A stretch of DNA of 64,000 nucleotides from Streptosporangium lutulentum (lineage in GTDB: Bacteria; Actinomycetota; Actinomycetes; Streptosporangiales; Streptosporangiaceae), in the NCBI RefSeq assembly GCF_030811455.1, contig NZ_JAUSQU010000001.1, positions 6,324,001 through 6,388,000 on the forward strand, given 5' to 3'. Made by a program: the position numbers and the translations under genes. The notes under the pieces were generated by a model. It did not search any database, had not been told where the DNA came from, and saw nothing but the letters and a program-made list of their open reading frames with translations. This document shows, one piece after another, positions 16,917-33,999 of the stretch. The stretch's first letter is position 1. Each line of letters begins with the position of its first letter.

Positions 16917-17858
16917 TCACCGCGTTCCTCTCCTGACGGTGCTCTGCACCTCGCCCACGGGGACGTCGCGGGTGGCGCTCGCCTCAATGGGGTCGTAGGC
17001 GAAGGGCACCACGTCGTCCTGAACCGCGACCTCCCAGGCGGAGGTCACCGTGAGCTCGTAGACGTCGCGGGGCAGGTCGACCGAGGCACGGAGGTACCTG
17101 ACACCACAGCCGAGGTCGTCCTCCGTCGCACCCTTGAAGTACGGCGTGCCGGTCTGGCCGCAGTCCTCCGTGACCACCACGGCGCGGTTCTTGTCGTCCG
17201 TCCCCGGGTCGATCTCGATGTTCTTCTGTGTGGCGACCACGGTCGCGCTCATGATTCCCGGGAGCGTCGCGGTCACGGACCTGGTGGTCTCGCCGCCGTT
17301 GTCCAGCCAGACCCAGGTGCCCAGGTTGACGTAGCTCTTGGCGTCGGGGTTGAGCTGGACCTTCGGCTCGGGCACGGTCAGCGCCGCCCGGGCGAGGTCG
17401 GCGAGATCCTGGAGGGTGATCCCGGCGGGCGGGGTCGTGCCGGGCGGAACCCAGACGAAGGGGTCCAGCGCGCTCCAGCAGGACATCCCATCGGGATCGG
17501 CTCCGTTGTAGGCGGGCCCCCACCAGCGGCCGTCCTCGCCGACCTTGTCCTGGAACTGCTTGAGGAACTCCTGGAACTTCTCCTCGGTGGCGCCCGGGGT
17601 GAAACGGAACCACCAGGCGCGCACCTCCTGCTGGTTCTCCAGCATGTCGGGGGCGTTCGGCCCGGGTTCGTACCAGCACGGGCGCTTGATCCGGTAGCCG
17701 TCACTCGTGCCGCTGGTTCCGGTCCCGGTGATGATGATCTGGGAGTTCTCCAGACGGACCCCCACCGTGCGGCCGCTCTGGAAGCCTTCGCCGGTCGGGG
17801 CCCCCGGATCTCCCGAGGCAAACAGGAGCAATCCCGCAACGATCACATTTTCGATCAT
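16917..17858 (-). CDS. Secreted protein at the end of the Tad operon, function unknown
   Basis: A 313-residue protein with a short hydrophobic start (MIENVIVAGLLLFASG) that may be a signal peptide, although basic residues are missing from its n-region. The mature part has Trp-rich segments (RAWWFRFTPG, GRWWGPAYNG, TWVWLDNGG) and an even number of scattered cysteines, as in an extracellular beta-sandwich. I do not recognise a named family. ATG 17858 overlaps the stop of the upstream lipoprotein gene (ATGA), so it belongs to the Tad transcription unit. A surface role linked to the pilus is inference from position. Confidence 0.7.
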   Translation of the reverse strand: MIENVIVAGLLLFASGDPGAPTGEGFQSGRTVGVRLENSQIIITGTGTSGTSDGYRIKRPCWYEPGPNAPDMLENQQEVRAWWFRFTPGATEEKFQEFLKQFQDKVGEDGRWWGPAYNGADPDGMSCWSALDPFVWVPPGTTPPAGITLQDLADLARAALTVPEPKVQLNPDAKSYVNLGTWVWLDNGGETTRSVTATLPGIMSATVVATQKNIEIDPGTDDKNRAVVVTEDCGQTGTPYFKGATEDDLGCGVRYLRASVDLPRDVYELTVTSAWEVAVQDDVVPFAYDPIEASATRDVPVGEVQSTVRRGTR

Positions 17859-18541
17859 CGAAGACAACCCTTCGCACGGTCATTGGGAAGTTCGGCGTGG
17901 CGGAACAGCTTGATCCGCCGGACTCCGTCGTCGCCCCGCCCGATTCCGACGGATTGGAAGAAGGGCTTCCGGGTCCAGTCGGGCTGCACGGGGACCGCTT
18001 TGCCCGTCGACGAGTACACGAGACGCATCTCCGACTGGTCCACGCACGCGTCGAGCTGCGCTCCCGGACCGGTGACCGAGCTGACGTTCAGCGCGTACAG
18101 CCGGACGGTCCCGCGTACCGACCGGCGCTCGTCCAGGAACTCCTGCACCCACGAGACCGCGTCCCGGCTCGCGCCGTCCGTGACCGTGTCGAGGTAGGCG
18201 GTGTCCCGGCCCTTGCTCGCGACCGCCTTGAACACCCCGGCGAAGTAGTCACGGAGGACCTCGATCAGCTCGGTGGTGTCCTGGCCGGGTGCGGCGGGCC
18301 ACTCGACCACCACCCGCACCCCGGGCGCGACCTGGACCGTCTCCACCTTCGGCGTGGGCACGGCCTGCTGCGAGGACGCCCGGGAGCCGGCGTCGGCGGG
18401 AAGATCGATCGGGGTGAACGGCTGGGCGGCCGACGGGGAACAACCCGTCAGCACGATCAGGGCCAGCGCGGTCACAACACGCACATCGATCACGCTAGAA
18501 GCGCCCGCCGGGCGAAACCATCGATATGCGCCAATCGGCAT
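17855..18541 (-). CDS. Putative lipoprotein in the Tad operon
   Basis: A 228-residue protein whose N-terminus holds a hydrophobic run ending in the lipobox LTGC (Cys34 with ATG 18541), predicting lipid anchoring outside the membrane. The mature part has no recognised domain; it contains VRVVVEWPAAPG and a helical ELIEVLRDYFAGVFKA stretch. Starts at 18604 (ATG, better ribosome site but long leader) and GTG 18493 (short leader) are also possible. It overlaps the next gene and follows the LysM-BTAD gene by about 135 bases. Function unknown; the location suggests a pilus or envelope accessory. Confidence 0.72.
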   Translation of the reverse strand: MPIGAYRWFRPAGASSVIDVRVVTALALIVLTGCSPSAAQPFTPIDLPADAGSRASSQQAVPTPKVETVQVAPGVRVVVEWPAAPGQDTTELIEVLRDYFAGVFKAVASKGRDTAYLDTVTDGASRDAVSWVQEFLDERRSVRGTVRLYALNVSSVTGPGAQLDACVDQSEMRLVYSSTGKAVPVQPDWTRKPFFQSVGIGRGDDGVRRIKLFRHAELPNDRAKGCLR

Positions 18542-18675
18542 GGCTGCGCGCACACCCTTCATCCGACTGCTCGCCCCCGCGTCGCGCATCCGGTGATTCG
18601 TCATGATTTCGCGTGCCTTTCCCTTCCGATCCTCCGGCGCGGCTCTCACCTCGGGCTCCGGGCCCGTCCGCCCGG

Positions 18676-21531
18676 TCATGCCGTCGGCGCCGAGCGCATC
18701 CGCCACGAGGGCAGGAGCTCGTCGATGAGGGCCTCGGTCTCCGGCGCCATCCCGCCGCCGTAGGGGTGGGAGGCGGCCCGCCGGTGCAGGGCGTCGGCCA
18801 CTGCTCCCAGCCGTCCGGGATCGGAGGTCAGGTGGGTGGCCCGCAACAGGTCGCGCCAGAGACCCTCGTCGTCGGCGGCCAGCAGCAGTCCGGCCCGCAC
18901 CGCCGCCACGGCCTCGTCGGCCTCGCCGTGGGCCAGTCGCACCTCGCAGAGCCGATGCGCGGCGTCCGCGACGCCCGCGGTCACGTTGTACTCCAGGTCG
19001 TCGGCGGCCAGCCAGGTGTAGCGACCACGCGGGCGGCCGTTCAGCAGCGGACCCCGTACCAGGTTCAGGGCCTCCTCCAGGAGCCGGGCGCGGCCGGTGG
19101 GGTCGGTGTGCGACCTGCGGACGAAGTCGCGGAAGAGCATCCAGTCGGTCCGCACGTCGGGCCCCAGGCGGAGCCGCCCGGACTCGTCGGCGTAGAGGTT
19201 GGGCCGTCCCTCGCCGTCGGTGCCCAGCCACGCGACGACCCTGGCGATCGTGGCGTCCCTGACCACGGACTGCACGCCCCGCGGCCAGAGGATGCCGCCG
19301 AGCACGACGGGATGGACCCCACCGGGATGGGTCGCCAGGTAGACGACCATCTCGACGGCGAGCACGGCCCGTCCCTCCTCCAGGGGCGGCGGCCCGGTGA
19401 TCTCGATCGAACCCAGGATCCGCACCTCGACCGAGGGCGTCCGGGTGACCTGCTCCGGCTCGTCGGGCAGGGGCTCGCCCTCGAATCGCCCGGCCGTCAG
19501 GAACAGGTCGATCAGCGCCCGGTACTGGCGGCGGGGCAGCAGCTGGGCGTCCACCTCGAAACCGAGCACGTCCACGGCGGCCCGGTCGTTCTCGGTGATC
19601 GTCCAGTTCCAGGTGGCGTGCGGGACGTCGCCCGCGATCACATATCCGGCGGCCGTACGGGTGCCCTTCCTGCCGAGCATCGCCAGGCGGCGGCCCTCCT
19701 CGGCGCTCGGGGCGATCGCGGACAGCAGGTAGTGCGGCGGCCAGGCCGGGTCGGCGGCGCGTCCGTGGATCCGGCCGGTCAGCACCTCTCCGCCGTGGCC
19801 GCGATCACCGGCCTTGGCCTCCAGTTCGGGCAGGACCTCGGCCAGGCTTCCCACGCATCTGATCCTCTCGGGAGCGATCACGGCCAGCTCCTCGCCGAAG
19901 CCGACGAGCGTGATGCGCATCCGGTCCGACCAGCGGTTGGTGGCCAGCTCCACCGCGAGCGCGGCGAGGGCGGCGGTGGCCTGGGGGCCCTTGACGCTGA
20001 TCAGTCCGTGGGCGGCCTCCAGGTCGACGAGCACCCTGCCCTCGCCGTTGGAGCCGAGCGAGACCAGACCCGGATACGGCGCGGGCGCGTCGGCGAGAGC
20101 CTGCTCGTCGAGCATCCGGCCCTCGTGCGCGGGGAGCCGCCACACCTGGCCGCCGTCGTGGGCGGCCCAGGGCGCGGGAGCGTCGGGGTCGGGCGGGTGG
20201 ATCCACAGGTCTAGGGTCTGCGCGGACAGGTGGGCGGCGTAGATCGTGGGCGGGATCCGGTCCTGGGCCGCGAGGGACCTGCCGAGAAGCCGGAGCCCGA
20301 TGTCCAGCATCCGGCTGCCGGGGGCGTCCGCGCCGAGCCGGAGCGCGACCTCGGCCTGGGCGGCGTCGTCTCTCGGCCGGGTGATCCGGTGCCCGAACGC
20401 CCGATGCCAGAGCTGCTCCCTGCGCCTGCGCCCGAGTGCCGCCAGCAGCCCCGCCGCCGCCAGCGAGGCGCCCGCCAGGTAGTCGAGCATCCCCAGCCCG
20501 GCGTCCTGCCCCGTGTTCTGGCTCGTGTTCTGCCCGGTGTTCTGGTTCGCGTTCTGGCTCGTGTTCTGCCCCGTGTGGCCGGGCTCGGCCGTCGCTCCCG
20601 GGTCCCGGCGCTCGGCGGGACCGCTCTGCCCGCCTTCGGACCTTCCCTCGGGGATGACGGAGGTGTCCGGGGAGACGGAGACCTCGGACGGGGACTCCAC
20701 CGGGAGGGCCGAGCGGCCGGGATCGACGTTCTGGGTGCGGCCGTCCAGTTTGGCGGGTTTGGTGCGGTGGTCCTTGAGGGTGTCGTCCCGGGGCTGGGAC
20801 GCCGGGACGACGTGAATGTTCCTGGCGTCGTCCGGCATGTCCAGCACCCACCCGGGCCTGATCAGGTCGGCCATGTGGAGGCGGCTGCCGTCGGGCTGTT
20901 CCTTGTGCTGGTTGAGCTTATAGATCTCCGGATAGCGCCGACCGTCGCCGAGACACTTCTCCGCGATCTCCCACAGGCTCTCGTGGTGCCGTCCATGCGG
21001 CGGCTGCACCACGTAGACCTTCTTGGCCTTCTCCACCGACACCAGCGGCGCCCGCTCCTCGGCGGCCGGTGAGGACATGGCGTACAGGGCGGTCGCGACG
21101 GTGGCGGGCCGGGCGGGCGGGCCGGTCAGCTTCGCGATCGGGACGACCACCGCCGACACCGTGAACAGCAGCAGGACGGCCGAGACCAGCCGGTTGGCGA
21201 GCAACTGGGTGCCGCCGGACAGTGGCACCCTGGCCGGCATGCCGACCCGGCGCAGCCCGGCGTAGATCTCGACGATCACGCAGACGACCAGCTGAGCCCA
21301 CGCGAGCCAGACCAGCAGCACGAGGATCGCGGTGATCGTGCTCGTGCCCACCTGGCTGGTCAGCAGGTCGAGGTTGAGCAACTCAGGAGGAAGCGGCGGC
21401 CCGGCCAGCCGGAGCAGGGCGTAAGGGACTCCGGCGATGAGTGCGACCAGGACGACCAGCGCGCCGAGTCCGGCCAGCAGGTCGCCCGGGGTGCGCTTGG
21501 GCTTGATACGTACGGGCTGTCGCGTGGGCAT
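18676..21531 (-). CDS. Four-TM LysM and BTAD (SARP-like) regulator
   Basis: A 951-residue membrane protein. Predicted helices are at 19-41, 64-90, 112-133 and 349-367. Between helices 3 and 4, a LysM-like peptidoglycan-binding domain (172-232, YVVQPP...SLWEIAEKCLGDGRRYPEIYKLN) and a linker of six XQNX repeats (321-344) should face outside. After helix 4, a long cytoplasmic region leads to a winged-helix-like segment (701-790) and a BTAD helical domain (795-945), as in SARP activators. ATG 21531 has GGAGG upstream. BTAD proteins regulate transcription, so wall sensing coupled to gene control is plausible but unproven. Similar proteins accompany Tad loci in other actinomycetes. Confidence 0.85.
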   Translation of the reverse strand: MPTRQPVRIKPKRTPGDLLAGLGALVVLVALIAGVPYALLRLAGPPLPPELLNLDLLTSQVGTSTITAILVLLVWLAWAQLVVCVIVEIYAGLRRVGMPARVPLSGGTQLLANRLVSAVLLLFTVSAVVVPIAKLTGPPARPATVATALYAMSSPAAEERAPLVSVEKAKKVYVVQPPHGRHHESLWEIAEKCLGDGRRYPEIYKLNQHKEQPDGSRLHMADLIRPGWVLDMPDDARNIHVVPASQPRDDTLKDHRTKPAKLDGRTQNVDPGRSALPVESPSEVSVSPDTSVIPEGRSEGGQSGPAERRDPGATAEPGHTGQNTSQNANQNTGQNTSQNTGQDAGLGMLDYLAGASLAAAGLLAALGRRRREQLWHRAFGHRITRPRDDAAQAEVALRLGADAPGSRMLDIGLRLLGRSLAAQDRIPPTIYAAHLSAQTLDLWIHPPDPDAPAPWAAHDGGQVWRLPAHEGRMLDEQALADAPAPYPGLVSLGSNGEGRVLVDLEAAHGLISVKGPQATAALAALAVELATNRWSDRMRITLVGFGEELAVIAPERIRCVGSLAEVLPELEAKAGDRGHGGEVLTGRIHGRAADPAWPPHYLLSAIAPSAEEGRRLAMLGRKGTRTAAGYVIAGDVPHATWNWTITENDRAAVDVLGFEVDAQLLPRRQYRALIDLFLTAGRFEGEPLPDEPEQVTRTPSVEVRILGSIEITGPPPLEEGRAVLAVEMVVYLATHPGGVHPVVLGGILWPRGVQSVVRDATIARVVAWLGTDGEGRPNLYADESGRLRLGPDVRTDWMLFRDFVRRSHTDPTGRARLLEEALNLVRGPLLNGRPRGRYTWLAADDLEYNVTAGVADAAHRLCEVRLAHGEADEAVAAVRAGLLLAADDEGLWRDLLRATHLTSDPGRLGAVADALHRRAASHPYGGGMAPETEALIDELLPSWRMRSAPTA
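20501..20572. repeat. 12-bp tandem repeat, six copies
   Basis: Six in-frame units of the gtgttctggctc type. On the minus strand they encode GQNT, SQNA, NQNT, GQNT, SQNT and GQDA, a flexible polar linker before the fourth membrane helix of the LysM-BTAD protein. Confidence 0.9.
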
Positions 21532-21583
21532 TCCTCTCCCTCCTCGTCCAGATTCGTGGCCGGTCATCCGGCGGGCCCGCGGT

Positions 21584-22195
21584 TCACGGCAATTGGTCTT
21601 CCCCGGTGTCCGGACCGGCGGTGGCCGTGGCCTCCATCTCCGAACCGGGGAAACCGAAGGCGGCGAGGAAGAACGCCTTCCAGCTGACGGAGACGCTCAC
21701 CGTGACCTCGGCCTGGCCCGGTTCGACCGTGCACTCGGGGGGCTGAATGTCCTCGCCGTCGTGGGCGGAGACGATCTCCTCGGCCTTTTCGCAGACCGTG
21801 GCGCCCTCCAGTAGCCGAGCCTGGCCGGTCTCACGGAGATACTCGACGTCGACCTGGTCGGCGGCGGCCCTGGCGGCCTGCTCGGCGACGTCGGCGGCCC
21901 GCAGCCGGGCGTTGATGGCGGCCCCGCCGTCCACGAGAAGCCCCGCCAGCAGGAAGACCACCACGGAGAAGAGCACCGTGAAGATCGACATCGATCCTCG
22001 GTCGCCGCGGCGGCTCCCATCGGCGGCTCCTCGAACGGACGCGCCACAAGCACGCGGCGGCGACGCCCCCGCCCTGGCACGCCCGGATCCACCGGAAGCA
22101 CGCGGCGGCGACTCCTTCGCGTCAACGCGCTCCCCCGGACGCCCGGGTCCACCGGAAGCGCGCGGCGGTGCTCCGCCTTCTCCAGCGAGATTCAA
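21584..22195 (-). CDS. TadG/TadE-like pilus assembly protein
   Basis: A pseudopilin-like protein with one N-terminal anchor helix (SIFTVLFSVVVFLLAGLLVDGGAA) preceded by RRGDRGS, the charged stretch usual in TadE/TadG proteins. The rest is an outside domain ending in TAGPDTGEDQLP. The frame opens at TTG 22195, but the first 60 residues are three PPRASGG-type repeats and may not be translated. ATG 21991, with GAGGA before it, gives a 135-residue protein starting at the anchor. It lies in the Tad operon, adjoining another TadE-like gene and followed by the LysM-BTAD gene. Confidence 0.75.
   Translation of the reverse strand: MNLAGEGGAPPRASGGPGRPGERVDAKESPPRASGGSGRARAGASPPRACGASVRGAADGSRRGDRGSMSIFTVLFSVVVFLLAGLLVDGGAAINARLRAADVAEQAARAAADQVDVEYLRETGQARLLEGATVCEKAEEIVSAHDGEDIQPPECTVEPGQAEVTVSVSVSWKAFFLAAFGFPGSEMEATATAGPDTGEDQLP
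22045..22190. repeat. Three degenerate repeats at the tadE/tadG junction
   Basis: Copies of (a/g)aagc(a/g)cgcggcggcgactcc occur at about 22048, 22096 and 22156, the last two inside near-identical 35-base blocks 60 bases apart. They encode the PPRASGG units at the N-terminus of the downstream open frame. Confidence 0.75.
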
Positions 22196-22686
22196 TCCTC
22201 GACCCTCCGGTACAGCTCAAGCGGGACCACCGAGTCGCCCGTCATCTCCTTGGCCGCGCCGAAGCCGAGGAACGCGAGGTCCAGCGAACAGGTCACCTCG
22301 ACCCGGACCCGTCCGCCCTCCGTCCAGTCCGAACCGGTCAGGCTGACCTCCGGCTCGCACTCGCCCGACAGCGCGGCCTCGGCCGCCTCACCGGCCGCGG
22401 TCTCGGCGTCGGACTGGGTGCGCTCCACCGAAGCGGCCCTGGCGGCGTCCCTGGCCGCTCCGTTGACCTCGCCCTGAGCCTCCACCACCCTTCCCGCGCC
22501 GACCAGGAACAGCAGGAACAGCAGGAAGACCGGGGCGAGCAGCACCGTCTCGGCGCTCAGCGACCCGCGTTCGCCGTCACGCCGCCGCCCGGACCGGCCG
22601 GCGGCGCCTTCCCGATCGCGTTCCCGCTCGGGGCCGTGATCGCATCCATGGGCGCGGCCGGAGCGGAGCTGGGAGATCACGGACAT
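22192..22686 (-). CDS. TadE-like pilus assembly protein
   Basis: A 164-residue protein with a highly basic cytoplasmic start, then ERGSLSAETVLLAPVFLLFLLFLVGAGR, the TadE-type anchor helix with the usual Glu at +5 after a possible processing site. The outside domain has one Cys pair (GECEPE, VTCSLD). It overlaps the preceding TadE gene by 10 bases. Minor pseudopilins of this kind are needed for assembly of Tad pili; the exact job of each paralogue here cannot be told. Confidence 0.85.
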   Translation of the reverse strand: MSVISQLRSGRAHGCDHGPERERDREGAAGRSGRRRDGERGSLSAETVLLAPVFLLFLLFLVGAGRVVEAQGEVNGAARDAARAASVERTQSDAETAAGEAAEAALSGECEPEVSLTGSDWTEGGRVRVEVTCSLDLAFLGFGAAKEMTGDSVVPLELYRRVED

Positions 22687-23102
22687 CCCTCACCGTCGCC
22701 GTTGTCCTCGTCGGGGCGGAAGCACTCGATGGGTCCTCCGAAGCGGGCGGTGACGGTGAACGTCGTGGAGGGCAGCAGCGGGATGACCTGGACCGCCGTG
22801 GCGGTGATCTCGACGCCTCGCTGGTCGCCCTCCTGCCAGGTCTCGACCGTGGCGCCGTCGAGGAGCTTCGGACCGATGGCCTTGAGCAGCTCGTCGGCCC
22901 GCTCCTTCGCGCCGGTCTCCCAGTCGTCCGTGTCGATCCGGGCCAGCCGCGCCCCTTCCCTGGCCGCGGCGTCGGCCACCTGGCGCCCGTGGAACCACAG
23001 GGCCGACTGCACGATGAGCAGGATGACGACCAGCACCACCGGCATGATGATCGCCAGCTCGACGACGGTGGCGCCCCGCTCCCGGTCGCTACCCCTGGTC
23101 AC
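22677..23102 (-). CDS. TadE-like pilus assembly protein
   Basis: Contains the classical TadE start DRERGATVVELAIIMPVVLVVILLIVQSALWFHGRQVADAAAREGAR: basic residues, a GATVVE processing-like motif, one helix, then an Ala-rich amphipathic helix. GTG 23102 gives 141 residues and overlaps the Flp gene by 14 bases; GTG 23132 is an alternative. First of three TadE/G-like genes in the operon. Confidence 0.87.
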   Translation of the reverse strand: MTRGSDRERGATVVELAIIMPVVLVVILLIVQSALWFHGRQVADAAAREGARLARIDTDDWETGAKERADELLKAIGPKLLDGATVETWQEGDQRGVEITATAVQVIPLLPSTTFTVTARFGGPIECFRPDEDNGDGEGCP

Positions 23103-23349
23103 CGACTTCACCGCCACCACCACCGCCGCCACCGCCGCCGCCGCCGCCGAACTGTTCCTCGATCTCGCCCTGCTTCTCCTCCACCAGGGTCCTGATGAGC
23201 GCGGCGAGACCGAGCGCCACCCCGGCGATGATGGCGGTGATGATGACCCACTCGACGGCGGAGGCTCCCCTGGTGGGGGCGTTGCGGGCCTTGTCGATCC
23301 GCACGTTCAGGAAGGCGACCGTATAAACGATCCACGGATGGTTCAGCAT
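23089..23349 (-). CDS. Flp-type pilin
   Basis: An 86-residue pilin. A 28-residue leader ends at the G of RGASAVEWVIITAIIAG; cleavage after that Gly would leave Ala+1 and Glu+5 as in Flp/type IVb pilins, though the usual Tyr+6 is Trp. One hydrophobic helix follows, then a charged stretch (EEKQGEIEEQF) and an unusual run of 13 glycines at the C-terminus. It lies two bases after tadC and overlaps the first TadE gene. No prepilin peptidase gene is present in this window, so processing relies on one elsewhere. Confidence 0.85.
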   Translation of the reverse strand: MLNHPWIVYTVAFLNVRIDKARNAPTRGASAVEWVIITAIIAGVALGLAALIRTLVEEKQGEIEEQFGGGGGGGGGGGGGEVGDQG

Positions 23350-23351
23350 GG

Positions 23352-24287
23352 TCAGGACCCCAACATCTTCATAGCGGCCGGGAAACTCAGAAAGATCACG
23401 AAGCCTGCGCAGAGCAGAAGCTGGGCGACGAGCATCGACTGGGACCGCTCGCCCGCCTTCCCCTCCACCTCGGCGAGCTCGCGCCGCCGCATGGTCGCGG
23501 CGCGGGCGGTCAGGGACGAGCGGACCTTGGCACCGTCGTCGGCGACCAGCCCGAGTGCGGCGGACAGGTCGCGCAGCTCGTCGACGTTGATCTCGTCACC
23601 GAGCTGGCCGAGGGCCTGCCAGGGGGTGATGCCGACGATCCTGGCGTTGCCGAGCGCCTCGCGGATCCGGGACATCGCCCAGTTGGTCCCCTCGTCGTCG
23701 GGCCCGGGACTGCCCACGGAGACCGCCATCATCAGCGCCTCGGGCACGCCGCGCCCACCCGCGAGGTTCATCGCCACCAGGTCCAGGAAGGAGCCGACGA
23801 CGTGCCGGAAGTCGCGGCGCATCCGGGCGGCGTCCCGTTTGATCTGCAGGTCGGGCAGGACGAAGAAGAGCCCGGCGACGATGAGCGCGGCCCACAGCGG
23901 GATGGTGAGCGAGACGCCCCACTCCATCAGCACCAGCCAGCCGAGCAGCAGCGGGAACGCCAGCAGCCCGGAGACGGCCAGCAGCACCTTGGTCGCCAGG
24001 AAGCCCTCGAACGACTTGCCCAGCAGCGCCAGATCCGCCTTCGCCGAGCGGACCTCCCAGCCCCTGGCGGCGTAGAAGCGGGCCAGCCGTACGCCCAGAT
24101 TCCGCCGGAACGCGCTGACCTCCTCGTCGGGCAGGATGAGCCGCGCGGCCGAGGCGTTCGTCCCCTCCCTGGCCGCGTCCAGCGCCAGCAGCCGCGTGAC
24201 CAGGCCGGGGCGGGCCGGGAACAGAGCACGTATCAGCAGGAACAGGCCCAGTCCGAGCACCGCTCCCGCGAGCAGTTCCTCAGTCAT
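23352..24287 (-). CDS. tadC: TadC, pilus assembly inner-membrane protein
   Basis: A 311-residue T2SSF-domain protein with an N-terminal helix, two central helices (VLLAVSGLLAFPLLLGWLV, IPLWAALIVAGLFFVLPDL) and a C-terminal one. The family block FLDLVAMNLAGGRGVPEALMMA is present. With TadB it forms the membrane platform driven by the TadA ATPase. ATG 24287 overlaps the tadB stop by eight bases. Confidence 0.93.
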   Translation of the reverse strand: MTEELLAGAVLGLGLFLLIRALFPARPGLVTRLLALDAAREGTNASAARLILPDEEVSAFRRNLGVRLARFYAARGWEVRSAKADLALLGKSFEGFLATKVLLAVSGLLAFPLLLGWLVLMEWGVSLTIPLWAALIVAGLFFVLPDLQIKRDAARMRRDFRHVVGSFLDLVAMNLAGGRGVPEALMMAVSVGSPGPDDEGTNWAMSRIREALGNARIVGITPWQALGQLGDEINVDELRDLSAALGLVADDGAKVRSSLTARAATMRRRELAEVEGKAGERSQSMLVAQLLLCAGFVIFLSFPAAMKMLGS

Positions 24288-25167
24288 CGCGCACCTCACC
24301 TCCGGAGGGCAGGCCCAGCAGGCGGGCGGGCTTGTCGAAACGGGCCAGCCGGCGCATCCAGGCGAACCCGGCGCCGAAGAACCCGGCGACGACCACGAGT
24401 ACGGCCTGGCCGAGGGTGTTGTCGTACTCCTCGACGTAGGAGGGGTTGAACACGACCAGCAGGGCGGCGAAGGCGACGGCCGTACCGACCACGATCTGGG
24501 CGCTGCGCCGGGTGGAGCGACGCTCCGCCTCGACCCGGCGGCGCATGTCGAGCTCCTCGCGGGCCGATACGGCCAGCGCGCCGAGCACGTCGCGCAGACC
24601 GGGGCCGCGCAACTTGGAGTTGAGGATCAGAGCGGCCACGACCAGGTCGGCCGAGGGGTCGTCGAGCTCGTCGGCGAACAACCGGAGCGCGTCGGGCAGC
24701 GCCATCCGGGTGCGCAGGCGGTCGACCAGCGCCAGCAGGTGCGGGCGGAGCGTGGGGGCGGCGGCCCGGATGGAGGACGGGATCGCCTGTTCCAGACCCG
24801 CCGCTCCGGCGATGGTGTCGCGGAGCGACTCGGTCCAGGCGGCCAGCCCCTCCAGCTGACGCATCGCCGTGCGTTCGGAGGCCGCGCCACCGGAGAGGCC
24901 CTTCCATCCGATCGCGAGAAGCACGGCTCCCACCGCCATGACCGGCCATCCGGTCACCACGAGCACGACCAGCCCGGCGATGGCGCCCACGGCGGAGCGG
25001 GTGGACAGCGCCCGGACGAACTCGCGCCTGCCGGCCTTCCGGTTCGGGGTGGCCTGTTTGGGGCGCATGCCGTACAGGGCGAGGACGAGCAGGAACAGGC
25101 CGGCGCCCACCACGGCCCCGGAGAGCAGCACCAGCGGGTCGAACAGTCCCGGCGGGATGGGGATCAT
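24280..25167 (-). CDS. tadB: TadB, pilus assembly inner-membrane protein
   Basis: A 295-residue T2SSF-domain protein. It has two N-terminal helices, the central cytoplasmic block (LAAWTESLRDTIAGAAGLEQAI and a DDPSADLVVAALI motif), and two C-terminal helices. Paralogue and partner of TadC. The ATG overlaps the tadA stop as ATGA. Confidence 0.93.
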   Translation of the reverse strand: MIPIPPGLFDPLVLLSGAVVGAGLFLLVLALYGMRPKQATPNRKAGRREFVRALSTRSAVGAIAGLVVLVVTGWPVMAVGAVLLAIGWKGLSGGAASERTAMRQLEGLAAWTESLRDTIAGAAGLEQAIPSSIRAAAPTLRPHLLALVDRLRTRMALPDALRLFADELDDPSADLVVAALILNSKLRGPGLRDVLGALAVSAREELDMRRRVEAERRSTRRSAQIVVGTAVAFAALLVVFNPSYVEEYDNTLGQAVLVVVAGFFGAGFAWMRRLARFDKPARLLGLPSGGEVRDD

Positions 25168-26503: not shown

Positions 26504-26690
26504 GGGGCGGCCCCCGGCACGGAGGATCGCCGGCCCACCCCCGGCACTCGGGGTCGGCAGGCCACCTCTGGCGCTCGGGGTCGGCAGACCGCCTGCGGTA
26601 CGCGGGGTCGGCAGAGCGGCCACGGCGCGTGAGTTCGCCGGACCGGCTCCGGCGCGACGGCTCATTGGACCGGCTCCGGGGCGCGGACCT
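26504..26690. repeat. 27-28-bp degenerate tandem repeats between cpaE-like and tadA
   Basis: About six units ending in ctcggggtcggca or similar, with period 26-28 bases. They fill the gap and run slightly into the 3' end of the CpaE-like gene. No coding role is evident. Confidence 0.75.
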
Positions 26691-27417
26691 GCGCCGTGAG
26701 ACGACCGGCGAGCTCGCGGGCGGTGCGGATCAGCAGCGAGCGGTCCAGGCGTCCGCCCCACTGGCCGCGCAGCAACTCCGCGCCCTTGGGGTCGTGGGCG
26801 AGCCCGCTCACGAAGGCGACGCTCCTGCCGGTGGCGGCGACGATGCGGCGGACCTCGTCGATCGTCGTGCGGTACTGGCGGGGGTCGGCGATCACCACCA
26901 CGCCGACCTGGGGATCGCGCGGCATCACCTGGAGGCGCTCGCGCAGATGCGCGACGTGGTCCAGGCTCGCCCTGGTGAACAGCACCACCAGCGCGGCCTC
27001 GGCTGTCAGTTCGGCCAGCTGCGGGTGCCCGCCGAGCCGGCCGCAGTCGGCCAGCACGTCCGCCTGGGGCAGTGCGGCCAGCGCCCGGCCGAGCGGGCTC
27101 CAGAGCCAGGTCAGCCCAGCCGCCTGCTCTCCGTGGGTCAGCCCCGCCAGGACGTCCAGGCCACCGATGATCTTCTGGGTGTGCTCGTAGACCTGGTCGG
27201 GGTGCAGGCCGCGGCGGGCCGTGGCGCCCAGGGTGAGCAGGCCCCTGCTGGGGTTGAGCACGCCGCCGTCGGCGGCGGGGAGGCGATAGGCGAGGTCCCC
27301 TCCCGCCGGATCGCACTCGGCGAGCAGCACCGGGCGCGGCCAGACCGCGCCGAGTGCCGTGGCCGCCGTGGTCACGCCCGGCGCGCCCTTGTCGGCGGCC
27401 AGCACGATAAGCGCCAC
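26662..27417 (-). CDS. CpaE/MinD-like pilus protein with altered P-loop
   Basis: A 251-residue MinD/ParA-fold protein, the usual TadZ/CpaE position that localises the pilus machine. The deviant Walker A is KGAPGVTTAA: the conserved GKT lysine is Val, although the first lysine (KG) and the later ECDPAGGD motif remain. Such GxPGVTT loops are seen in other actinobacterial CpaE-like proteins, so it probably binds rather than hydrolyses nucleotide. GTG 27417 is two bases after the SAF gene stop. Confidence 0.85.
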   Translation of the reverse strand: MALIVLAADKGAPGVTTAATALGAVWPRPVLLAECDPAGGDLAYRLPAADGGVLNPSRGLLTLGATARRGLHPDQVYEHTQKIIGGLDVLAGLTHGEQAAGLTWLWSPLGRALAALPQADVLADCGRLGGHPQLAELTAEAALVVLFTRASLDHVAHLRERLQVMPRDPQVGVVVIADPRQYRTTIDEVRRIVAATGRSVAFVSGLAHDPKGAELLRGQWGGRLDRSLLIRTARELAGRLTAQVRAPEPVQ

Positions 27418-27418
27418 G

Positions 27419-28120
27419 TCAGCGCGCTCCGGGTAGCTCGGCCAGCGCGATCTCACCACTGGAGGCGTAGGCGACGACGGTCGGCGAGATCGAGCTGTCC
27501 ACGATCACCGTGACGCGACCGGTCGATCCGCTGCTGCCCGGTGTCCCGACCTGGTCGACCAGGGCGCTCTCGGCCAGCACCCTGCTCTGCGCGGTCGAGG
27601 TGCCGCCCCGGCTGGGCACGTAGACGATCTGGACCCGGTCGCCCCTCTCCAGGGTGCCCGGCGACTGGCCGGGTTTGAGCGACAGGCCGACCTGCGCCTT
27701 CCCCGGGCCCAGCTCCCTGCTGGAGGAGACCACCATCTCCCTGGTGAGCAGGGTTCCGGGGATGAGGGTGACCCGGGCGAAATTCTCGGCGACGCGGGCG
27801 CGGTCGGCCCAGGCGACGTAACCGATGCCGGTGTCGGCGATCTGGACCTCCCTCATCACCGCCTCGGTGAAGGGCTGGCCCGCGCCGACCTGCCGGGTGA
27901 TTCCGATCGCGGAGACACGGTCTCCACTGCGCAGGACCAGCAGGGTGGTGGCGAGGGCGCCGCCCAGAATGAGCAGAACGGCTAGGGCGGCGAGCGCGGG
28001 TTTGCGCTCGCGCGGGGGCACGGGAAGTTTGCGCGACGCAGGCCCTGAAAGGGTGCCCGCCGACATTTGCCTGTCGGCGTTCACCGGGACACGGCCCGTT
28101 GGCTTCTCACTGGTCCTCAT
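27419..28120 (-). CDS. CpaB/RcpC-like SAF-domain pilus protein
   Basis: A 233-residue protein with one membrane helix (41-63), an SAF domain (residues about 68-130, ITRQVGAGQPFTEAVMREV...IPGTLLTREMV) and a RcpC-like beta domain (LKPGQSPGTLERGDRVQIVYVP). CpaB proteins support the Tad channel at the wall side. It is the first gene of the Tad operon, reading away from the EssC-like gene across an 860-base gap. ATG 28147 is a possible longer start. Confidence 0.88.
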   Translation of the reverse strand: MRTSEKPTGRVPVNADRQMSAGTLSGPASRKLPVPPRERKPALAALAVLLILGGALATTLLVLRSGDRVSAIGITRQVGAGQPFTEAVMREVQIADTGIGYVAWADRARVAENFARVTLIPGTLLTREMVVSSSRELGPGKAQVGLSLKPGQSPGTLERGDRVQIVYVPSRGGTSTAQSRVLAESALVDQVGTPGSSGSTGRVTVIVDSSISPTVVAYASSGEIALAELPGAR

Positions 28121-28979
28121 GGGTAGGGGGACTCCCAGAGTGATCATAAATATGGGGACTACTGGTCGAATTTACGCCATTATGCGCACCATGCCGACGA
28201 GCTGCCGGACAAAAGCCAGTACCCATGCTCGTTTGATAGGAACACGTCTGTCAACGTCGCTTCAGAAGAACATGACGTTTTGGCTAGATGACAGGATACT
28301 TATCTGGGTGATAAGGACTGTTATTAACTCTCACAACAGTCGTCACACCATTTACACGCGTCATTTCGGATCGGGCTTCGACCTCGCTCCCTTCTCCCCC
28401 GCCAGGCGCGCACTTCCCATACGATTTCAATGCGCCTCTCATCGCCCCGAACTCGCTCAAACGCGCCGCCTCGAAGGCATGACCACGTCGTTCAGGTGCC
28501 GAGCGCCGGATACGGGACGTATCAGACCCCCCACCGCGACAGTCGAGCGCCCGCGACGCGGGGTCGCCGGACGCGTCGCCGCCGCACCGGCGACGGGAAG
28601 GGTCCTCGGTAGCCCGCGTCGCGCGGCGACCGGACGGGCCACGGCGACCTCCGAGGTGACCTCCGAGGTCAGCGCGTACGCCGGGCTCCCGGAGGAGAGG
28701 ACCGGCGAGCTCCGGGCCAGGATCCGCACCCGGAGGAGGCCCACCTCTCGGGGGAGTTTTCCACAGCCTCGTACGGCGAAGCCCCCGCTGGTCAGAAGCA
28801 TTGAAATCATCAAATGCCCATCTAGACCGGCATAATCGCCCAACACCGCCCGACAGTTGTCCACAGGCTGGGACGTTTTCCACATAGCAGGCGGTGACTC
28901 ATCGCATTGCCGCAAACAACCTCTCCAGAGCCGCCCGCACTATGTACCTTGGATCGGGGGCCTGACCCGAGGAGCGGCG
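28121..28979. other. Long divergent control region between the Tad operon and the EssC-like gene
   Basis: 859 bases without a supported gene. The Tad-side part (28140-28350) is AT-rich and contains the inverted repeat CTTATC-TGGGT-GATAAG (28299-28315). Bases 28380-28740 are GC-rich, with a direct repeat gacctccgaggt (28649-28672 area). The EssC-side part holds three TT(G/T)TCCACA boxes. GGAG ten bases before ATG 28980 is the ribosome site of the EssC-like gene. Two promoters are expected but no consensus pair stood out. Confidence 0.6.
28757..28884 (+). promoter_or_regulatory. Three DnaA-box-like sites
   Basis: TTTTCCACA at 28757-28765, TTGTCCACA at 28857-28865 and TTTTCCACA at 28876-28884, all in the same direction. 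TTGTCCACA equals the high-GC actinobacterial DnaA box. No dnaA/dnaN neighbours, so an origin is unlikely; a DnaA-responsive promoter is possible. Confidence 0.35.
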
Positions 28980-31900
28980 ATGCGGATCATGCTCACCGTG
29001 CTCAGCGAGCACACCGACCGCGATGTCGTGGTCGAAGGCGACGAAACGACCACGGTGGCGCGGCTCGCGGAGGCACTCGCCGGGCAGGCGGGTGAGCGGC
29101 CGACCAACGTGGTCCGCCTGACCCGCAGCAAGGCCCCCTACGGGCTGGGCCGCGACTCCCCCGCCGCCGAACCCCCCACCCTCTGGCTGGGCGGCCGGCC
29201 CCTGCCCCCCACCGCGCCCGCGCTGGGCCTGCTCCGTGACGGCGACCTCGTCACCCTCGAACGCGCCCTCGCCGGGGTCACCCTCACCGAGGAACCCGGC
29301 GGCATCGTGGAGATCCGGGTGATCGGCGGTCCCGCCGCCGGTTCCGTGCACCGCCTCAGCCTCGGCGTCCACACCATCGGCTCGGACCCGGCCTGTGCGG
29401 TGTCCGTCCCCGACCCCCTGCTGTCCGGCGAGGCGGCCGTGGTGCGGCTCACCCCCGACGCCATCACCGTGGAGCCCGCCGAGGGAGGCGGGCAGTACGC
29501 GCAGCGCGCCCCCCGCCTGGACCGCGACCCGCTGGAACGCGCCGAGCCGTGGCCCGAGCACGCCCTGCTGACCTGCGGCGCGACCGTGCTGACCCTCAAG
29601 ACCGTCGAACCGCCCGACGCCCACCTGGACGCCCAGTCCGACGGCGGGCTCGCCTACAACCGGCCGCCCAGGTTCCGGCCGCCGGGAGGCGGGCGGCGCT
29701 TCGAGGTCCCGGCCGAGCCCAAACGCGCCGAGACCATGCGGCTGCAACTGCTGACGGCGTTCCTGCCCGCCGGGCTGGGGGTGGCCATGGCCTGGGCCTT
29801 CCAGATCTGGTACTTCCTGCTGTTCGCGCTGATGACCCCGATGATCGTGATCGGCCAGTGGTGGAGCGACAGGCGGCACGGCCGCAAGCAGTACCGCCAG
29901 CAGATCAAGCGGTACAGGGAGCGGCTGAAGGCCTTCGAGGCCACCGTGGAGCAGGCCCGCGCCGACGACGAGACCGCCCGCCGTACCGCGGCGCCCGACC
30001 CCGCCGAGGTGCTGCTCACCGCGACCGGCCCGCGGCGGCGGCTGTGGGAGCGGCGCGACCACGACCCCGACGCGCTGCGGCTGCGGGTCGGCCTCGCCGA
30101 CCTCCCCGCCGACCTGGAGTTCGTCCCCGAACGCGCCGCCCCGATCGAGACCCCGATGCCCGACCCTCCCACCTGCCACGCGGTGCCGGTGGCCCTGGCC
30201 ATGCGCCGCCTGGGCGTCGCCGGCCTGACCGGCCCCCGGGAGACGACGGCCGGGCTGGCCCGCTGGCTGGTCGGTCAGGCCGCCACCCTGCACAGCCCGC
30301 GTGACCTGGCGATCGTCGTGCTCTCCGCGCACGGCGACGGCGAAGAACGCTGGAGCTGGGTCCGCTGGCTTCCGCACTGCGCCCCGCGCGGCGGCGAAGA
30401 CTGCGTGGTCCTGGTCGGCGCCGACCCCGAGGCCGCGGCCCGCAGGGTGAGCGAGCTGGCCACGCTGATAGAGGAGCGTCTCGACGAGAACGACGGCTCG
30501 GTGAGCTCGGCGATGAGGCCGGCCCGGATCCCGTCCGGCTGGAGCGACCTCGGCGGCGCGGAGCAACCGCTGGCCGCCCCCGTCTACGACGAGCGCCCGT
30601 ACGACGTGCTGGTCGTCCTGGACGGCGCCCAGGTCCTGCGCGCGCTGCCCGGCATGCCGCAGGTGCTCCGCCAGGGCCCCCGTGCGGGCGTCTACACCCT
30701 GGCCGTCGACGGCGACCAGCGGCTGCTGCCCGAGGAGTGCGCCACCGTGGCCGCGGTGACCGCGGACGGCACGGTCCGGCTGCGCGGCGGCGGCCTGGAC
30801 GACCTCGGCGAGATCCTGGCCGACCAGGTGTCGGCCTCCTGGTGCGACCGGCTCGCCCGCTCCCTGGCCCCGATCCGCGACGTCAGCAGGGACGACTCGA
30901 ACCTGGCCCTGCCCGGGTCCGCACGGCTGCTGGACCTGCTGGAGCTGCCCGCGATCTCGGGGACGGCCCTCGCCGGACGCTGGGGCCGCGGCACCGAGGC
31001 CGTGGTGGGAGTCGGCCCCGAAGGGGCGTTCTCCGTCGACCTGCGCCGGGACGGACCGCACGCGCTCATCGCGGGCACCACCGGCGCGGGCAAGTCCGAA
31101 CTGCTGCAGACCCTGATCTGCTCGCTGGCGGTGACCAACCGGCCCGACGAGATGACGTTCGTGCTGATCGACTACAAGGGCGGGGCCGCGTTCAAGGAGT
31201 GCGTACGGCTCCCGCACACGGTCGGCATGGTCAGCGACCTCGACGGCCATCTGACCCAGCGGGCCCTGGCCTCCCTGGCCGCCGAGATCCGCCGCAGGGA
31301 GCGCCTGCTGCTGTCCGCCGGCGCGAAGGACATCGAGGACTACCACGAGCTCCGCGACGCCCGGACGGCCCGCGCCTCCCGCGACCTGCTCGTCGCCGGC
31401 GGCGGGCCCTCGGTCAGGTCCCTGCGCGGACGTTCGGAGCCACCGCCCGCGCTGCCCCGGCTGGTGCTGGTCATCGACGAGTTCGCGGCCATGGTCAGCG
31501 AGCTGCCCGACTTCATGACCGGGCTGGTCGACATCGCCAGACGCGGCCGGTCGCTCGGCATCCACCTCATCCTCGCCACCCAGAGACCCGGCGGCGTGGT
31601 GACCGCCGACATCCAGGCCAACACCTCGCTGCGGATCGCGCTACGGGTCACCGAGGCCTCCGAGTCCGCCGACGTCATCGACCGTCCCGACGCCGCGCAC
31701 ATCTCCAAATCCACGCCCGGCAGGTGCTACGTGAAATCCGGCGCGGGCGGGGCGACGGCCGTGCAGACCGCCAGGATCGGCGGGCGGAGCCCCGGCGCCT
31801 CCAGCGAGGTCAGGGTCCGCGTGACGGAGCTCGGCTGGCGGGCTCTGGGCCATCCGCTGTCCGCGCCCGACCCGGCCCTCGACGGATCCCCTGTCACCGA

Positions 31901-33545
31901 CCTGTCCATCCTCACCGACGCCCTGGTCGACGCCGCCCGCATCGCGGGGATCCCCGAGCAGCCGAGTCCCTGGCTGCCGCCGCTCGCCGACCTCGTCGTC
32001 ACCCCCGCGTTCCCGGACCTGTCCGGCGACGCGCTGCCGTACCGCGCGGGGGTCGAGGAGGTGCCGCCGCTCGCGTTCGGAATCACCGACCTGCCGTGGG
32101 CGCAGGACCGCCGGGCGCTGGAGCTGGACCTCGCCCACGGGGGGCACCTGCTCCTCGCGGGCGCCTCGCGGAGCGGGCGGTCCACCGCCCTGCGCACGCT
32201 GGCGGGGGCGATCGCCGCCGGCGCCTCCCCCGACGACGTGCACGTGCACGCGATCGACTGCGGTTCGGGGGCCCTGCTGCCGCTGATGGCGATGCCGCAC
32301 TGCGGGGCGGTGGTGACCCGCGACCAGCTCGACCGGGTGGAGCGGCTGCTGACGCGGCTCCGCGCCGAGATCGGGCGGCGGCAGCAGCTCCTCGCCGAGG
32401 CCGGATACGCGTCGCTGGCCGAGCTGCGCGCCGTCCAGGGAGGGCCGCGGCTGCCGTGGCTGGTCCTGATGCTCGACCGGTGGGAGGGATTCGTCGCCGC
32501 GTTCGAGGGCTACGACTACGGGCGGCTGATCGAGTCGCTCATGCAGCTGCTCAGGGAGGGCCCGGCGGTCGGGCTGCGGGCCGTGGTGACCGGCGACCGG
32601 TCCGCGCTGATCGGGCAGATCTCCACGGTCTTCGACGACCGGCTGATCCTCCGGCTGGCCGATCCAGCCGACTACGGCCTGGCCGGGCTGCCCGTCAAGG
32701 ACCTGCCCGCCTCGCTCGCCCCCGGCCGCGCGCTGTCCATCGGCGAGCACGGCATCACCGAGAACCAGATCGCCCTGCTCTGCGACGACCCCTCGGGACC
32801 AGCCCAGGTCGCCGCGCTCCAGGCGCTGGCCCGGGCGGCCCGCGAGATCACCGCGGAGCCCCCGATGCGGGTGGACGCGCTGCCCATGCGCATCACCGTG
32901 GCCCAGACGCTGGATCTGGCGCCCTCCTTCAAGCCGCCGTCCCCGCTGTGGGCGCTGCTCGGCGCCGGAGGCGACTCACTGACCCCGCTCGGCGTCGACC
33001 TGCTCGCCCACGGCCCCGGCGCGGTCATCGCGGGCCCGCCCAGGTCCGGCCGGTCCTCGGCCCTGCTGACCGCCACCCAGTCCCTGCTCTCCCGCGGCAT
33101 CCCCACGGTCCTCGTCACCCCCCGCCGCAGCCCGCTGTGCACGCTGGTGGACGCGCCGGGCGTGCTGGCCGTGCTCGACGCGAACGGCGACCTGAACGAG
33201 GCCGTCGCCGGGCAGGAACGCTACGTCGTGATCGTCGACGACGCCGAGCTGATCGTCGCCGATTCGTCCCTCGGCATGGCCCTGGAGCAGGTGCTGCGCA
33301 CCGGCAGGGACGGCGAGCACGGCCTCATCGTCGGCGGCAGCACCGGCGATCTCGCCACCGCCTACCGCGGCTTCGTCGCCGAGGCCCGCAAGGCCCGCAC
33401 GGGCCTGCTCCTGTCGATCCAGAGTCCCGCCGACGGCGACCTGTTCACCGTCCGGCTGCCTCGCGGCGCGGTCGGCGGCCCGCCCGGCCGCGGCCTGCTG
33501 GTCACCCTGGGCTCGGTGGTCCCCATCCAGACCGCCATCACCTGA
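28980..33545 (+). CDS. EssC/EccC-type FtsK-SpoIIIE secretion ATPase with FHA-like N-terminus
   Basis: A 1521-residue motor of the type VII secretion class. Residues 1-95 resemble a ubiquitin-like fold (MRIMLTVL..., LWLGGRPLPP). Residues 109-195 look like an FHA domain (VHTIGSDPACAVSVPD). Two helices lie at about 251-295. Three FtsK/SpoIIIE ATPase domains follow: P-loop 1 GTTGAGKS at 699 with Walker B LVLVIDEF near 828; P-loop 2 GASRSGRS at 1061; P-loop 3 GPPRSGRS at 1352, the last two with Arg for the catalytic Lys. FHA-plus-ATPase order is like Firmicutes EssC rather than mycobacterial EccC. It converges on a WXG100 gene, its likely substrate; other secretion components are not in the window. 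Confidence 0.9.
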   Translation: MRIMLTVLSEHTDRDVVVEGDETTTVARLAEALAGQAGERPTNVVRLTRSKAPYGLGRDSPAAEPPTLWLGGRPLPPTAPALGLLRDGDLVTLERALAGVTLTEEPGGIVEIRVIGGPAAGSVHRLSLGVHTIGSDPACAVSVPDPLLSGEAAVVRLTPDAITVEPAEGGGQYAQRAPRLDRDPLERAEPWPEHALLTCGATVLTLKTVEPPDAHLDAQSDGGLAYNRPPRFRPPGGGRRFEVPAEPKRAETMRLQLLTAFLPAGLGVAMAWAFQIWYFLLFALMTPMIVIGQWWSDRRHGRKQYRQQIKRYRERLKAFEATVEQARADDETARRTAAPDPAEVLLTATGPRRRLWERRDHDPDALRLRVGLADLPADLEFVPERAAPIETPMPDPPTCHAVPVALAMRRLGVAGLTGPRETTAGLARWLVGQAATLHSPRDLAIVVLSAHGDGEERWSWVRWLPHCAPRGGEDCVVLVGADPEAAARRVSELATLIEERLDENDGSVSSAMRPARIPSGWSDLGGAEQPLAAPVYDERPYDVLVVLDGAQVLRALPGMPQVLRQGPRAGVYTLAVDGDQRLLPEECATVAAVTADGTVRLRGGGLDDLGEILADQVSASWCDRLARSLAPIRDVSRDDSNLALPGSARLLDLLELPAISGTALAGRWGRGTEAVVGVGPEGAFSVDLRRDGPHALIAGTTGAGKSELLQTLICSLAVTNRPDEMTFVLIDYKGGAAFKECVRLPHTVGMVSDLDGHLTQRALASLAAEIRRRERLLLSAGAKDIEDYHELRDARTARASRDLLVAGGGPSVRSLRGRSEPPPALPRLVLVIDEFAAMVSELPDFMTGLVDIARRGRSLGIHLILATQRPGGVVTADIQANTSLRIALRVTEASESADVIDRPDAAHISKSTPGRCYVKSGAGGATAVQTARIGGRSPGASSEVRVRVTELGWRALGHPLSAPDPALDGSPVTDLSILTDALVDAARIAGIPEQPSPWLPPLADLVVTPAFPDLSGDALPYRAGVEEVPPLAFGITDLPWAQDRRALELDLAHGGHLLLAGASRSGRSTALRTLAGAIAAGASPDDVHVHAIDCGSGALLPLMAMPHCGAVVTRDQLDRVERLLTRLRAEIGRRQQLLAEAGYASLAELRAVQGGPRLPWLVLMLDRWEGFVAAFEGYDYGRLIESLMQLLREGPAVGLRAVVTGDRSALIGQISTVFDDRLILRLADPADYGLAGLPVKDLPASLAPGRALSIGEHGITENQIALLCDDPSGPAQVAALQALARAAREITAEPPMRVDALPMRITVAQTLDLAPSFKPPSPLWALLGAGGDSLTPLGVDLLAHGPGAVIAGPPRSGRSSALLTATQSLLSRGIPTVLVTPRRSPLCTLVDAPGVLAVLDANGDLNEAVAGQERYVVIVDDAELIVADSSLGMALEQVLRTGRDGEHGLIVGGSTGDLATAYRGFVAEARKARTGLLLSIQSPADGDLFTVRLPRGAVGGPPGRGLLVTLGSVVPIQTAIT

Positions 33546-33671: not shown

Positions 33672-33701
33672 AACGCCCCGGCCCTCAAGGGCCGGGGCGT
33701 T
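33672..33701. terminator. Bidirectional terminator hairpin
   Basis: A perfect 14-bp stem, AACGCCCCGGCCCT and AGGGCCGGGGCGTT, with a two-base CA gap, ending in a short T/C stretch. It separates the convergent EssC-like and WXG100 genes. Confidence 0.88.
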
Positions 33702-33726
33702 CTGGCGGATCAGCCGGTTCGTGCGC

Positions 33727-33999
33727 CTAACGCGTGGCGGACTCGATGTTTCCTCGGTAGGTGTTGATGACCCGGGAAGCCTCGGCGAGCTCCTCGGACA
33801 TACGCTGGAAAGCCGCGCGGTAGTTCTGCCAGGCCTCGCTGAAACGCTGGGCGCCCGGGCCGGTCCAGGCGGTGCCGACCTTTGCGGCCTCCCGATCGAG
33901 GGCGGCCATTGTGGCCCTCACCTGGTCCGCCTGCTGGGTGAACTGGGTGGCCATCTGCTGCATTTCCGCGGGATTGCCGCCGAGCAAGTTCTGGCTCAT
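33727..33999 (-). CDS. WXG100 (ESAT-6-like) protein
   Basis: A 90-residue helical hairpin protein with W45-T-G47 at the turn and the expected amphipathic helices (MQQMATQFTQQADQVRATMAAL; FSEAWQNYRAAFQRMSEELAEASRVINTY). WXG100 proteins are substrates of type VII systems and usually act as dimers. AAGGAG sits before ATG 33999; in-frame codons upstream are not needed. Only one such gene is present, so it may form a homodimer. The C-terminal YxxxD/E signal is weak: YRGNIES is the nearest match. Its transcription runs toward the EssC-like gene. Confidence 0.92.
   Translation of the reverse strand: MSQNLLGGNPAEMQQMATQFTQQADQVRATMAALDREAAKVGTAWTGPGAQRFSEAWQNYRAAFQRMSEELAEASRVINTYRGNIESATR

What the first reader, a model, noticed from the sequence alone, without database searches (positions are those of the whole stretch)
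16917..33999. Back-to-back Tad pilus operon, LysM-BTAD protein and EssC-like/WXG100 pair
A near-complete Tad core (CpaB, CpaE-like, TadA, TadB, TadC, Flp, TadE/G) shares an 860-base divergent control region with an FHA-bearing EssC-like ATPase, and that gene faces one WXG100 gene. No EccB, EccD, EccE, mycosin, secretin or prepilin peptidase is seen. Tad and type VII-like parts may be co-regulated or function together in the envelope; that link is inference from position. This is the best candidate for a poorly described system here.
Basis: partly seen in the sequence, partly recalled or inferred. Interest (0 to 1): 0.72.

Follow-up and report, generated by a model that had tools for sequence, protein, structure and literature searches.

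The report
Tad pilus welded to secretion module
In this soil actinomycete (genus Streptosporangium) the genes for a surface pilus and for a small type VII-like protein exporter sit back to back, and the same pairing recurs, reshuffled, in many related bacterial families, so the two machines probably work together.

Summary
Minus-strand genes 16917-28147 form a complete Flp/Tad operon plus three extra genes. An 832-bp divergent region separates it from a plus-strand Ubl-FHA-FtsK/EssC-like ATPase (28980-33545), which faces one WXG100 gene (33727-33999). The proposed link, first inferred from position alone, survives testing. In 197 Actinomycetes genomes the same TadA clade occurs in 31 others; all 31 carry the ATPase family, within about 25 kb in 29. 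Seventy-six TadA loci of other clades: none near. Linkage survives at least five rearrangements, including single co-directional operons. The LysM-like protein in the tad operon has homologues beside the ATPase in Tad-less genomes, so it bridges the two systems. The ATPase is neither EccC nor EssC (below curated cut-offs, separate clade). Garrett et al. 2024 reported Tad beside the Bacillota subtypes T7SSg and T7SSh and could not say whether that was chance; their only new actinomycete subtype, T7SSd, differs. Best reading: an undescribed, Tad-coupled type VII subtype exporting WXG100. Coupling is well supported; mechanism and secretion are inferred. Three DnaA-box-like sites, the only ones in the window, lie before the ATPase gene and are conserved in several related genera.

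The parts
16917..17858 (-). p316: exported protein of unknown fold, last gene of the tad operon; fast-evolving
   Evidence: conserved beside the tad operon; AlphaFold pLDDT 85, no significant PDB match; pN/pS 0.5-0.8, the highest of 8 genes tested
17855..18475 (-). lipoprotein-like gene paired with p316
   Evidence: sequence LTGC; travels with p316
18676..21567 (-). membrane protein with LysM-like segment, middle domain 'X' (model positions ~385-655) and C-terminal BTAD
   Evidence: Pfam BTAD; LysM+X or X-only homologues lie beside the ATPase in Tad-less loci
21584..21991 (-). TadG-like protein
   Evidence: Pfam Tad 1e-8
22192..22545 (-). TadE-like minor pilin
   Evidence: Pfam TadE
22677..23132 (-). 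TadE-like minor pilin
   Evidence: Pfam TadE 2e-14
23089..23349 (-). Flp-like major pilin
   Evidence: prepilin-like motif RGASAVEWVIITAI read from sequence; conserved between TadC and TadE
23352..24287 (-). TadC
   Evidence: T2SSF weak; conserved
24280..25167 (-). TadB
   Evidence: T2SSF
25164..26465 (-). TadA/CpaF ATPase of the linked clade
   Evidence: T2SSE; clade split
26662..27417 (-). CpaE/TadZ-like ATPase
   Evidence: position and P-loop motif; conserved
27419..28147 (-). CpaB/RcpC
   Evidence: Pfam RcpC weak
28148..28979 (.). divergent control region
   Evidence: conserved blocks before cpaB (GATAAG inverted repeat, TGTCAACG) and before the ATPase gene
28757..28884 (+). three DnaA-box-like sites (28757, 28857, 28876)
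   Evidence: the only TTNTCCACA in 64 kb; about -224/-124/-105 in relatives; controls
28980..33545 (+). type VII-like ATPase: Ubl-like (1-95), FHA (104-211), two TM, three FtsK-type ATPase domains
   Evidence: the TM segments are read from the sequence
33727..33999 (-). WXG100 protein, single copy, convergent with the ATPase gene
   Evidence: Pfam/NCBIfam; 98-100% identical in the genus; pN/pS 0-0.035

Best explanation
This is a compact type VII-like export module genetically fused to one clade of actinomycete Tad pilus. The membrane ATPase (Ubl-like + FHA + TM + three FtsK domains, only the first with a canonical Walker A lysine) binds and exports the single WXG100 protein, probably as a homodimer. 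The tad-encoded LysM-like/X/BTAD membrane protein would be the ATPase's envelope partner, tying it to peptidoglycan and to the Tad machine. p316 and its lipoprotein partner would be surface parts of the pilus. Shown: architecture, conserved linkage, strong constraint on WXG100, the bridging homology. Inferred: secretion, homodimer, physical contact, surface role. Confidence that Tad and the ATPase/WXG100 module are functionally coupled is about 0.8; for this whole mechanism it is lower.
For: Linkage: 29 of 31 genomes with this TadA clade within about 25 kb, 0 of 76 for other TadA loci. Presence: ATPase family in 31 of 31 genomes with this TadA clade, 18 of 39 with only other TadA, 89 of 197 overall (counted). 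Rearranged yet linked: divergent; tad...LysM-BTAD-WXG-FtsK in one direction (L050, L139, L161, L165, L175); LysM-BTAD-FtsK-WXG (L154, L157); Nocardioides L153; Streptomyces L115, or 10-25 kb apart. Bridge: LysM+X or X proteins next to the ATPase in genomes with no TadA hit. Tad-less sister loci hold candidate T7SS_signal proteins beside the ATPase (below cut-off). WXG100 pN/pS 0-0.035 versus 0.07-0.19 for TadA. Nearest solved WXG100 structures are named EsxA.
Against: No secretion, expression or interaction data. No accessory T7 protein beyond the LysM-like one, so the membrane channel is unexplained. G157 and S. albus subsp. chlorinus keep both but about 2-4 Mb apart. Many genomes keep the ATPase without this Tad clade. 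In Nonomuraea the WXG100 gene is not next to the ATPase (G018: about 23 kb away). FHA lacks the phosphothreonine residues.
Confidence: 0.6

Rival explanations
1. Two independent surface systems kept together only because they share timing: the divergent region co-regulates them (for example during development or replication, through the DnaA-box-like sites), with no physical cooperation.
For: Shared 832-bp region with conserved blocks on both sides; DnaA-box-like trio before the ATPase; box clusters also at the genome's second tad locus.
Against: Linkage persists where the shared divergent promoter is lost (co-directional and separated arrangements); the LysM-like/X protein belongs to both.
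Confidence: 0.25
2. Chance or inherited neighbourhood: a single ancestral placement that was never broken, without function in common.
For: Vertical inheritance explains much of the linkage inside Streptosporangiaceae; pairs on two Streptomyces chromosomes are unlinked.
Against: At least five gene orders across families; 0 of 76 other TadA loci linked; presence is also tied, 31 of 31 versus 18 of 39.
Confidence: 0.1
3. The ATPase is a DNA translocase (FtsK/TraB-like) acting in DNA transfer or uptake with the Tad pilus, and WXG100 is accessory.
For: FtsK fold; Tad-type pili are known in DNA uptake in some actinobacteria (own knowledge, not tested).
Against: Best family scores are EssC/EccC, far above FtsK or TraB (487 and 393 versus 82 and 30 bits); WXG100 partner; three ATPase domains.
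Confidence: 0.05

Closest known systems
T7SSg and T7SSh of Bacillota (Garrett, Higginson and Palmer 2024, PMC11217815)
   Same: WXG100 + membrane ATPase + ubiquitin-like part, always encoded next to a Tad cluster
   Different: their ATPases lack FHA and Ubl is a separate gene; TshG, TshM, TsgL not seen here; other phylum; linkage there left open as possibly coincidental
T7SSd of Actinomycetota (same paper)
   Same: actinomycete, single WXG100, FHA-bearing ATPase
   Different: T7SSd FHA keeps phosphothreonine residues, has kinase TsdD, TsdH, TsdI, no ubiquitin-like part, and no Tad linkage is reported
T7SSb (EssC/EsxA) of Bacillota
   Same: FHA + TM + FtsK domains, single EsxA-like WXG100, FHA without phosphothreonine residues
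   Different: ATPase scores 487 bits against the 778 EssC cut-off; Ubl-like part fused to the ATPase; no EssA, EssB, EsaA recognised in the block
T7SSa / ESX (EccC)
   Same: FtsK-type ATPase and WXG100; an EccC-type locus exists elsewhere in this genome
   Different: no EccB/D/E or mycosin in the block; ATPase below EccCa/EccCb cut-offs and outside the EccC clade
Flp/Tad pilus loci
   Same: CpaB, CpaE, TadA, TadB, TadC, Flp, TadE, TadG
   Different: adds LysM-like/X/BTAD, lipoprotein and p316; prepilin peptidase unlinked

Membership tests
Flp/Tad pilus | TadA, TadB, TadC, Flp, TadE/G in one operon | tested here: met
   Flp by motif
Flp/Tad pilus | prepilin peptidase available | tested here: met
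   one PF01478 gene elsewhere, C1:638852; that it serves Flp is inferred
Type VII secretion (broad) | EccC/EssC-type membrane ATPase with three FtsK domains | tested here: met
Type VII secretion (broad) | WXG100 protein encoded with it | tested here: met
Type VII secretion (broad) | ATPase-dependent secretion of WXG100 | not testable with these tools
   needs experiment
T7SSa (ESX) | EccC equivalog score | tested here: not met
   393<509 and 313<346 bits; separate clade, support 100
T7SSa (ESX) | EccB, EccD, EccE, mycosin in the cluster | tested here: not met
   none among the block's genes
T7SSb (Ess/Yuk) | EssC equivalog score | tested here: not met
   487<778 bits
T7SSd | FHA with intact phosphothreonine motif, kinase TsdD, no Ubl | tested here: not met
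   GR and SxxH absent in the alignment; no kinase in the block; Ubl-like topology
T7SSg/T7SSh | ATPase without FHA, next to Tad | tested here: not met
   Tad linkage met, but an FHA fold is present
Ubiquitin-like EsaB/YukD fused to ATPase | beta-grasp fold at residues 1-95 | tested here: inconclusive
   AlphaFold strand/helix order fits; best profile match redesigned ubiquitin E 0.006; the structure hit list was filled by FHA
LysM domain | LysM match in the BTAD protein | tested here: inconclusive
   no Pfam match in 10 homologues; PDB LysM protein E 0.047
DnaA box cluster | DnaA binding | not testable with these tools
   consensus match only

The most novel reading that the evidence does not exclude
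Tad pilus and type VII module are one hybrid machine: the FHA/Ubl ATPase loads WXG100 (and perhaps cargo) through a LysM-anchored membrane complex onto or through the Tad apparatus. It would be an actinomycete counterpart of the Tad-linked T7SSg/T7SSh, meaning that coupling of Tad and type VII arose or persisted across two phyla.
Probability: 0.3. Interest if true: 0.85.

Novelty: new variant of a known kind. Interest (0 to 1): 0.68.

Why it matters
A 2024 survey found Tad loci beside two Bacillota type VII subtypes and could not tell coincidence from function because few genomes were available (PMC11217815). The actinomycete system described here has many genomes, several gene orders and internal controls (paralogous Tad loci in the same genomes), so the question becomes directly testable. 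Streptomycetaceae and Jiangella-type bacteria carry it, so genetics is feasible in laboratory strains. It also names a candidate shared component (the LysM-like/X/BTAD protein) and a possible replication-linked control element.

Tried and rejected
p316 fold: AlphaFold model good (pLDDT 85) but no significant PDB match; PDB matches near E 0.05-1 ignored. Ubl domain by Foldseek/VIA-align: the FHA domain filled the list, so neither shown nor excluded there. Rfam: nothing in the window. LysM by Pfam: not found even in homologues. T7SS_signal effectors in the own genome: only the WXG100 region itself, below cut-off. Literature by Streptomyces locus tags (SCO4508, SCO4526-4531, recalled from memory): only a promoter-cloning mention of SCO4508; DnaA-box cluster papers for Streptomyces: none useful. 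The alignment omitted the window row by a script slip; window box positions come. Considered and rejected: DNA translocase, canonical ESX, pure chance.

Full report
WHAT IS THERE. The window lies in a 10.6-Mb genome. Its nearest named relative in the collections is Streptosporangium violaceochromogenes (locus L082), whose contig has the same length (100,580) as that of a genome scored 'same genus' (G008, contig of locus L076), so the genus is Streptosporangium. A gene caller with Pfam gives, on the minus strand: CpaB, CpaE-like, TadA, TadB, TadC, Flp, TadE, TadE, TadG, a 963-aa membrane protein with BTAD, a lipoprotein-like gene and p316. A divergent region of 832 bp follows, then a 1521-aa ATPase on the plus strand and a convergent 90-aa WXG100 gene.

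IS THE LINK MORE THAN POSITION. In the relatives set all 15 same-genus genomes keep TadA, ATPase and WXG100 in one block (G010 is split by a contig end). In an even draw of 197 genomes of the class, TadA matches fall into two score groups with a gap between them (804 bits or more, and 587 or less). The upper clade occurs in 31 genomes besides this one. All 31 have the ATPase family; 28 within 25 kb, one at 25.2 kb, one on another contig of a fragmented assembly, one 2.1 Mb away. Of 76 TadA loci in the lower group none is within 25 kb, and the listing of those under 100 kb is empty. By my count, genomes with only lower-group TadA carry the ATPase family in 18 of 39 cases, the class background being 89 of 197. 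Relatedness inflates these counts, but the contrast lies inside the same genomes.

REARRANGED YET LINKED. Gene order differs between families while linkage stays. Divergent in Streptosporangiaceae, Actinomadura, Actinoallomurus, Actinacidiphila and Aeromicrobium. One co-directional array CpaB...TadG, LysM-BTAD, WXG100, ATPase in Jiangella (L161), an uncultured actinomycete (L139), G058 (L050), G188 (L165) and G260 (L175). LysM-BTAD, ATPase, WXG100 in Serinicoccus (L154, L157). A third order in Nocardioides (L153). ATPase and WXG100 upstream of cpaB in Streptomyces sp. 7-21 (L115). In many Streptomyces the tad operon lies roughly 10-25 kb away where contigs can be matched (compare). S. albus subsp. 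chlorinus and G157 have the two far apart.

A SHARED COMPONENT. The BTAD protein of the tad operon has a LysM-like segment and a middle domain, here called X. In genomes without a TadA match (L145, L150, L155 and L159; L051 in G056) a protein carrying X, with or without the LysM-like segment and without the BTAD region, lies 1-2 genes from the ATPase (11 genes in L150); further cases are L052, L053 and L143. So the gene that sits in the tad operon here has relatives that go with the ATPase. This is the strongest anatomical sign that the two systems meet. Not every Tad-less locus has it. Tad-less loci also hold proteins with weak T7SS_signal matches beside the ATPase, which fits a protein exporter.

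THE ATPASE. NCBIfam scores are highest for EssC and EccC but below all three cut-offs. In a tree of 108 sequences six EccC-type proteins form their own branch with full support, two of them from this genome (quick method, midpoint root). The N-terminus was modelled from 31 homologues: residues 104-211 are an FHA fold (Z 16.5 to 3gqs_A, rmsd 1.8 over 97 residues); residues 1-95 have the strand-helix order of a ubiquitin-like fold, with only weak sequence support. The FHA lacks the GR and SxxH residues, as described for EssC in PMC11217815. Walker A motifs are GTTGAGKS, GASRSGRS and GPPRSGRS, so only the first domain has the canonical lysine. No named subtype of PMC11217815 has this combination in the sections read.

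WXG100. One gene, 98-100% identical across the genus, pN/pS 0-0.035 against 0.07-0.19 for TadA and 0.5-0.8 for p316. It is the most constrained of the eight genes tested, p316 the least, as expected for a surface-exposed protein. The nearest solved structures are named EsxA, which are homodimers (own knowledge).

CONTROL REGION. TTNTCCACA occurs three times in the 64 kb, all 95-225 bp before the ATPase start. The same trio at about -224, -124 and -105 is found in Streptosporangium; similar trios or pairs in Planobispora, Planomonospora, Sphaerisporangium, Herbidospora and Sinosporangium. Nineteen of 111 ATPase upstream regions have two or more, against 3 of 1670 other genes in the same loci. 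In the whole genome only four close same-strand pairs exist; this is one, and two lie at the genome's other Tad locus. They look like DnaA boxes; binding is untested.

MECHANISM. Most likely an ATPase-driven WXG100 exporter acting with the Tad pilus, the LysM-like/X/BTAD protein as the joint. Secretion, contacts and order of events are inferred. Co-regulation without contact is the main rival; it does not explain linkage after loss of the shared promoter, nor the shared component.

KNOWN AND NEW. Tad next to type VII is already on record in Bacillota (T7SSg, T7SSh; PMC11217815), with coincidence left open. Literature searches here surfaced no description of the actinomycete pairing; the library holds open-licence papers only. 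I class it as a new variant of a known kind.

Noticed in passing
window 28757, 28857, 28876: Only three TTNTCCACA sites in the window, all before the ATPase gene, with conserved spacing in related genera; possible DnaA control or titration site.
   Followed up: partly
L181 (G000:C1:7195000-7214500): A second, Rv3654c-Rv3660c-like Tad locus; its tadA reading frame appears split by an insert with two tyrosine-recombinase genes and a third gene; it also carries two clusters of the same DnaA-box-like sites.
   Followed up: partly
L069 (G018:C222:56000-75900): In a Nonomuraea-like genome an ESX-type cluster (EccC, EccD, subtilase, kinase) lies between the ATPase and its WXG100 gene.
   Followed up: partly
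L086, L092, L106: Planotetraspora, Microbispora corallina and Sphaerisporangium rufum carry two tad gene sets around the ATPase.
   Followed up: no
window 16917-17858: p316, exported, unknown fold, fastest-evolving of 8 genes tested in the block; candidate pilus-associated surface protein.
   Followed up: partly
L162 3210-4310 and 6751-7857: Two WXG100-domain proteins (366 and 368 aa) with identical starts, close together at the genome's EccC-type locus.
   Followed up: no
L137 14621-16432: In Streptomyces a Ser/Thr kinase gene lies directly beside the ATPase of this family.
   Followed up: no
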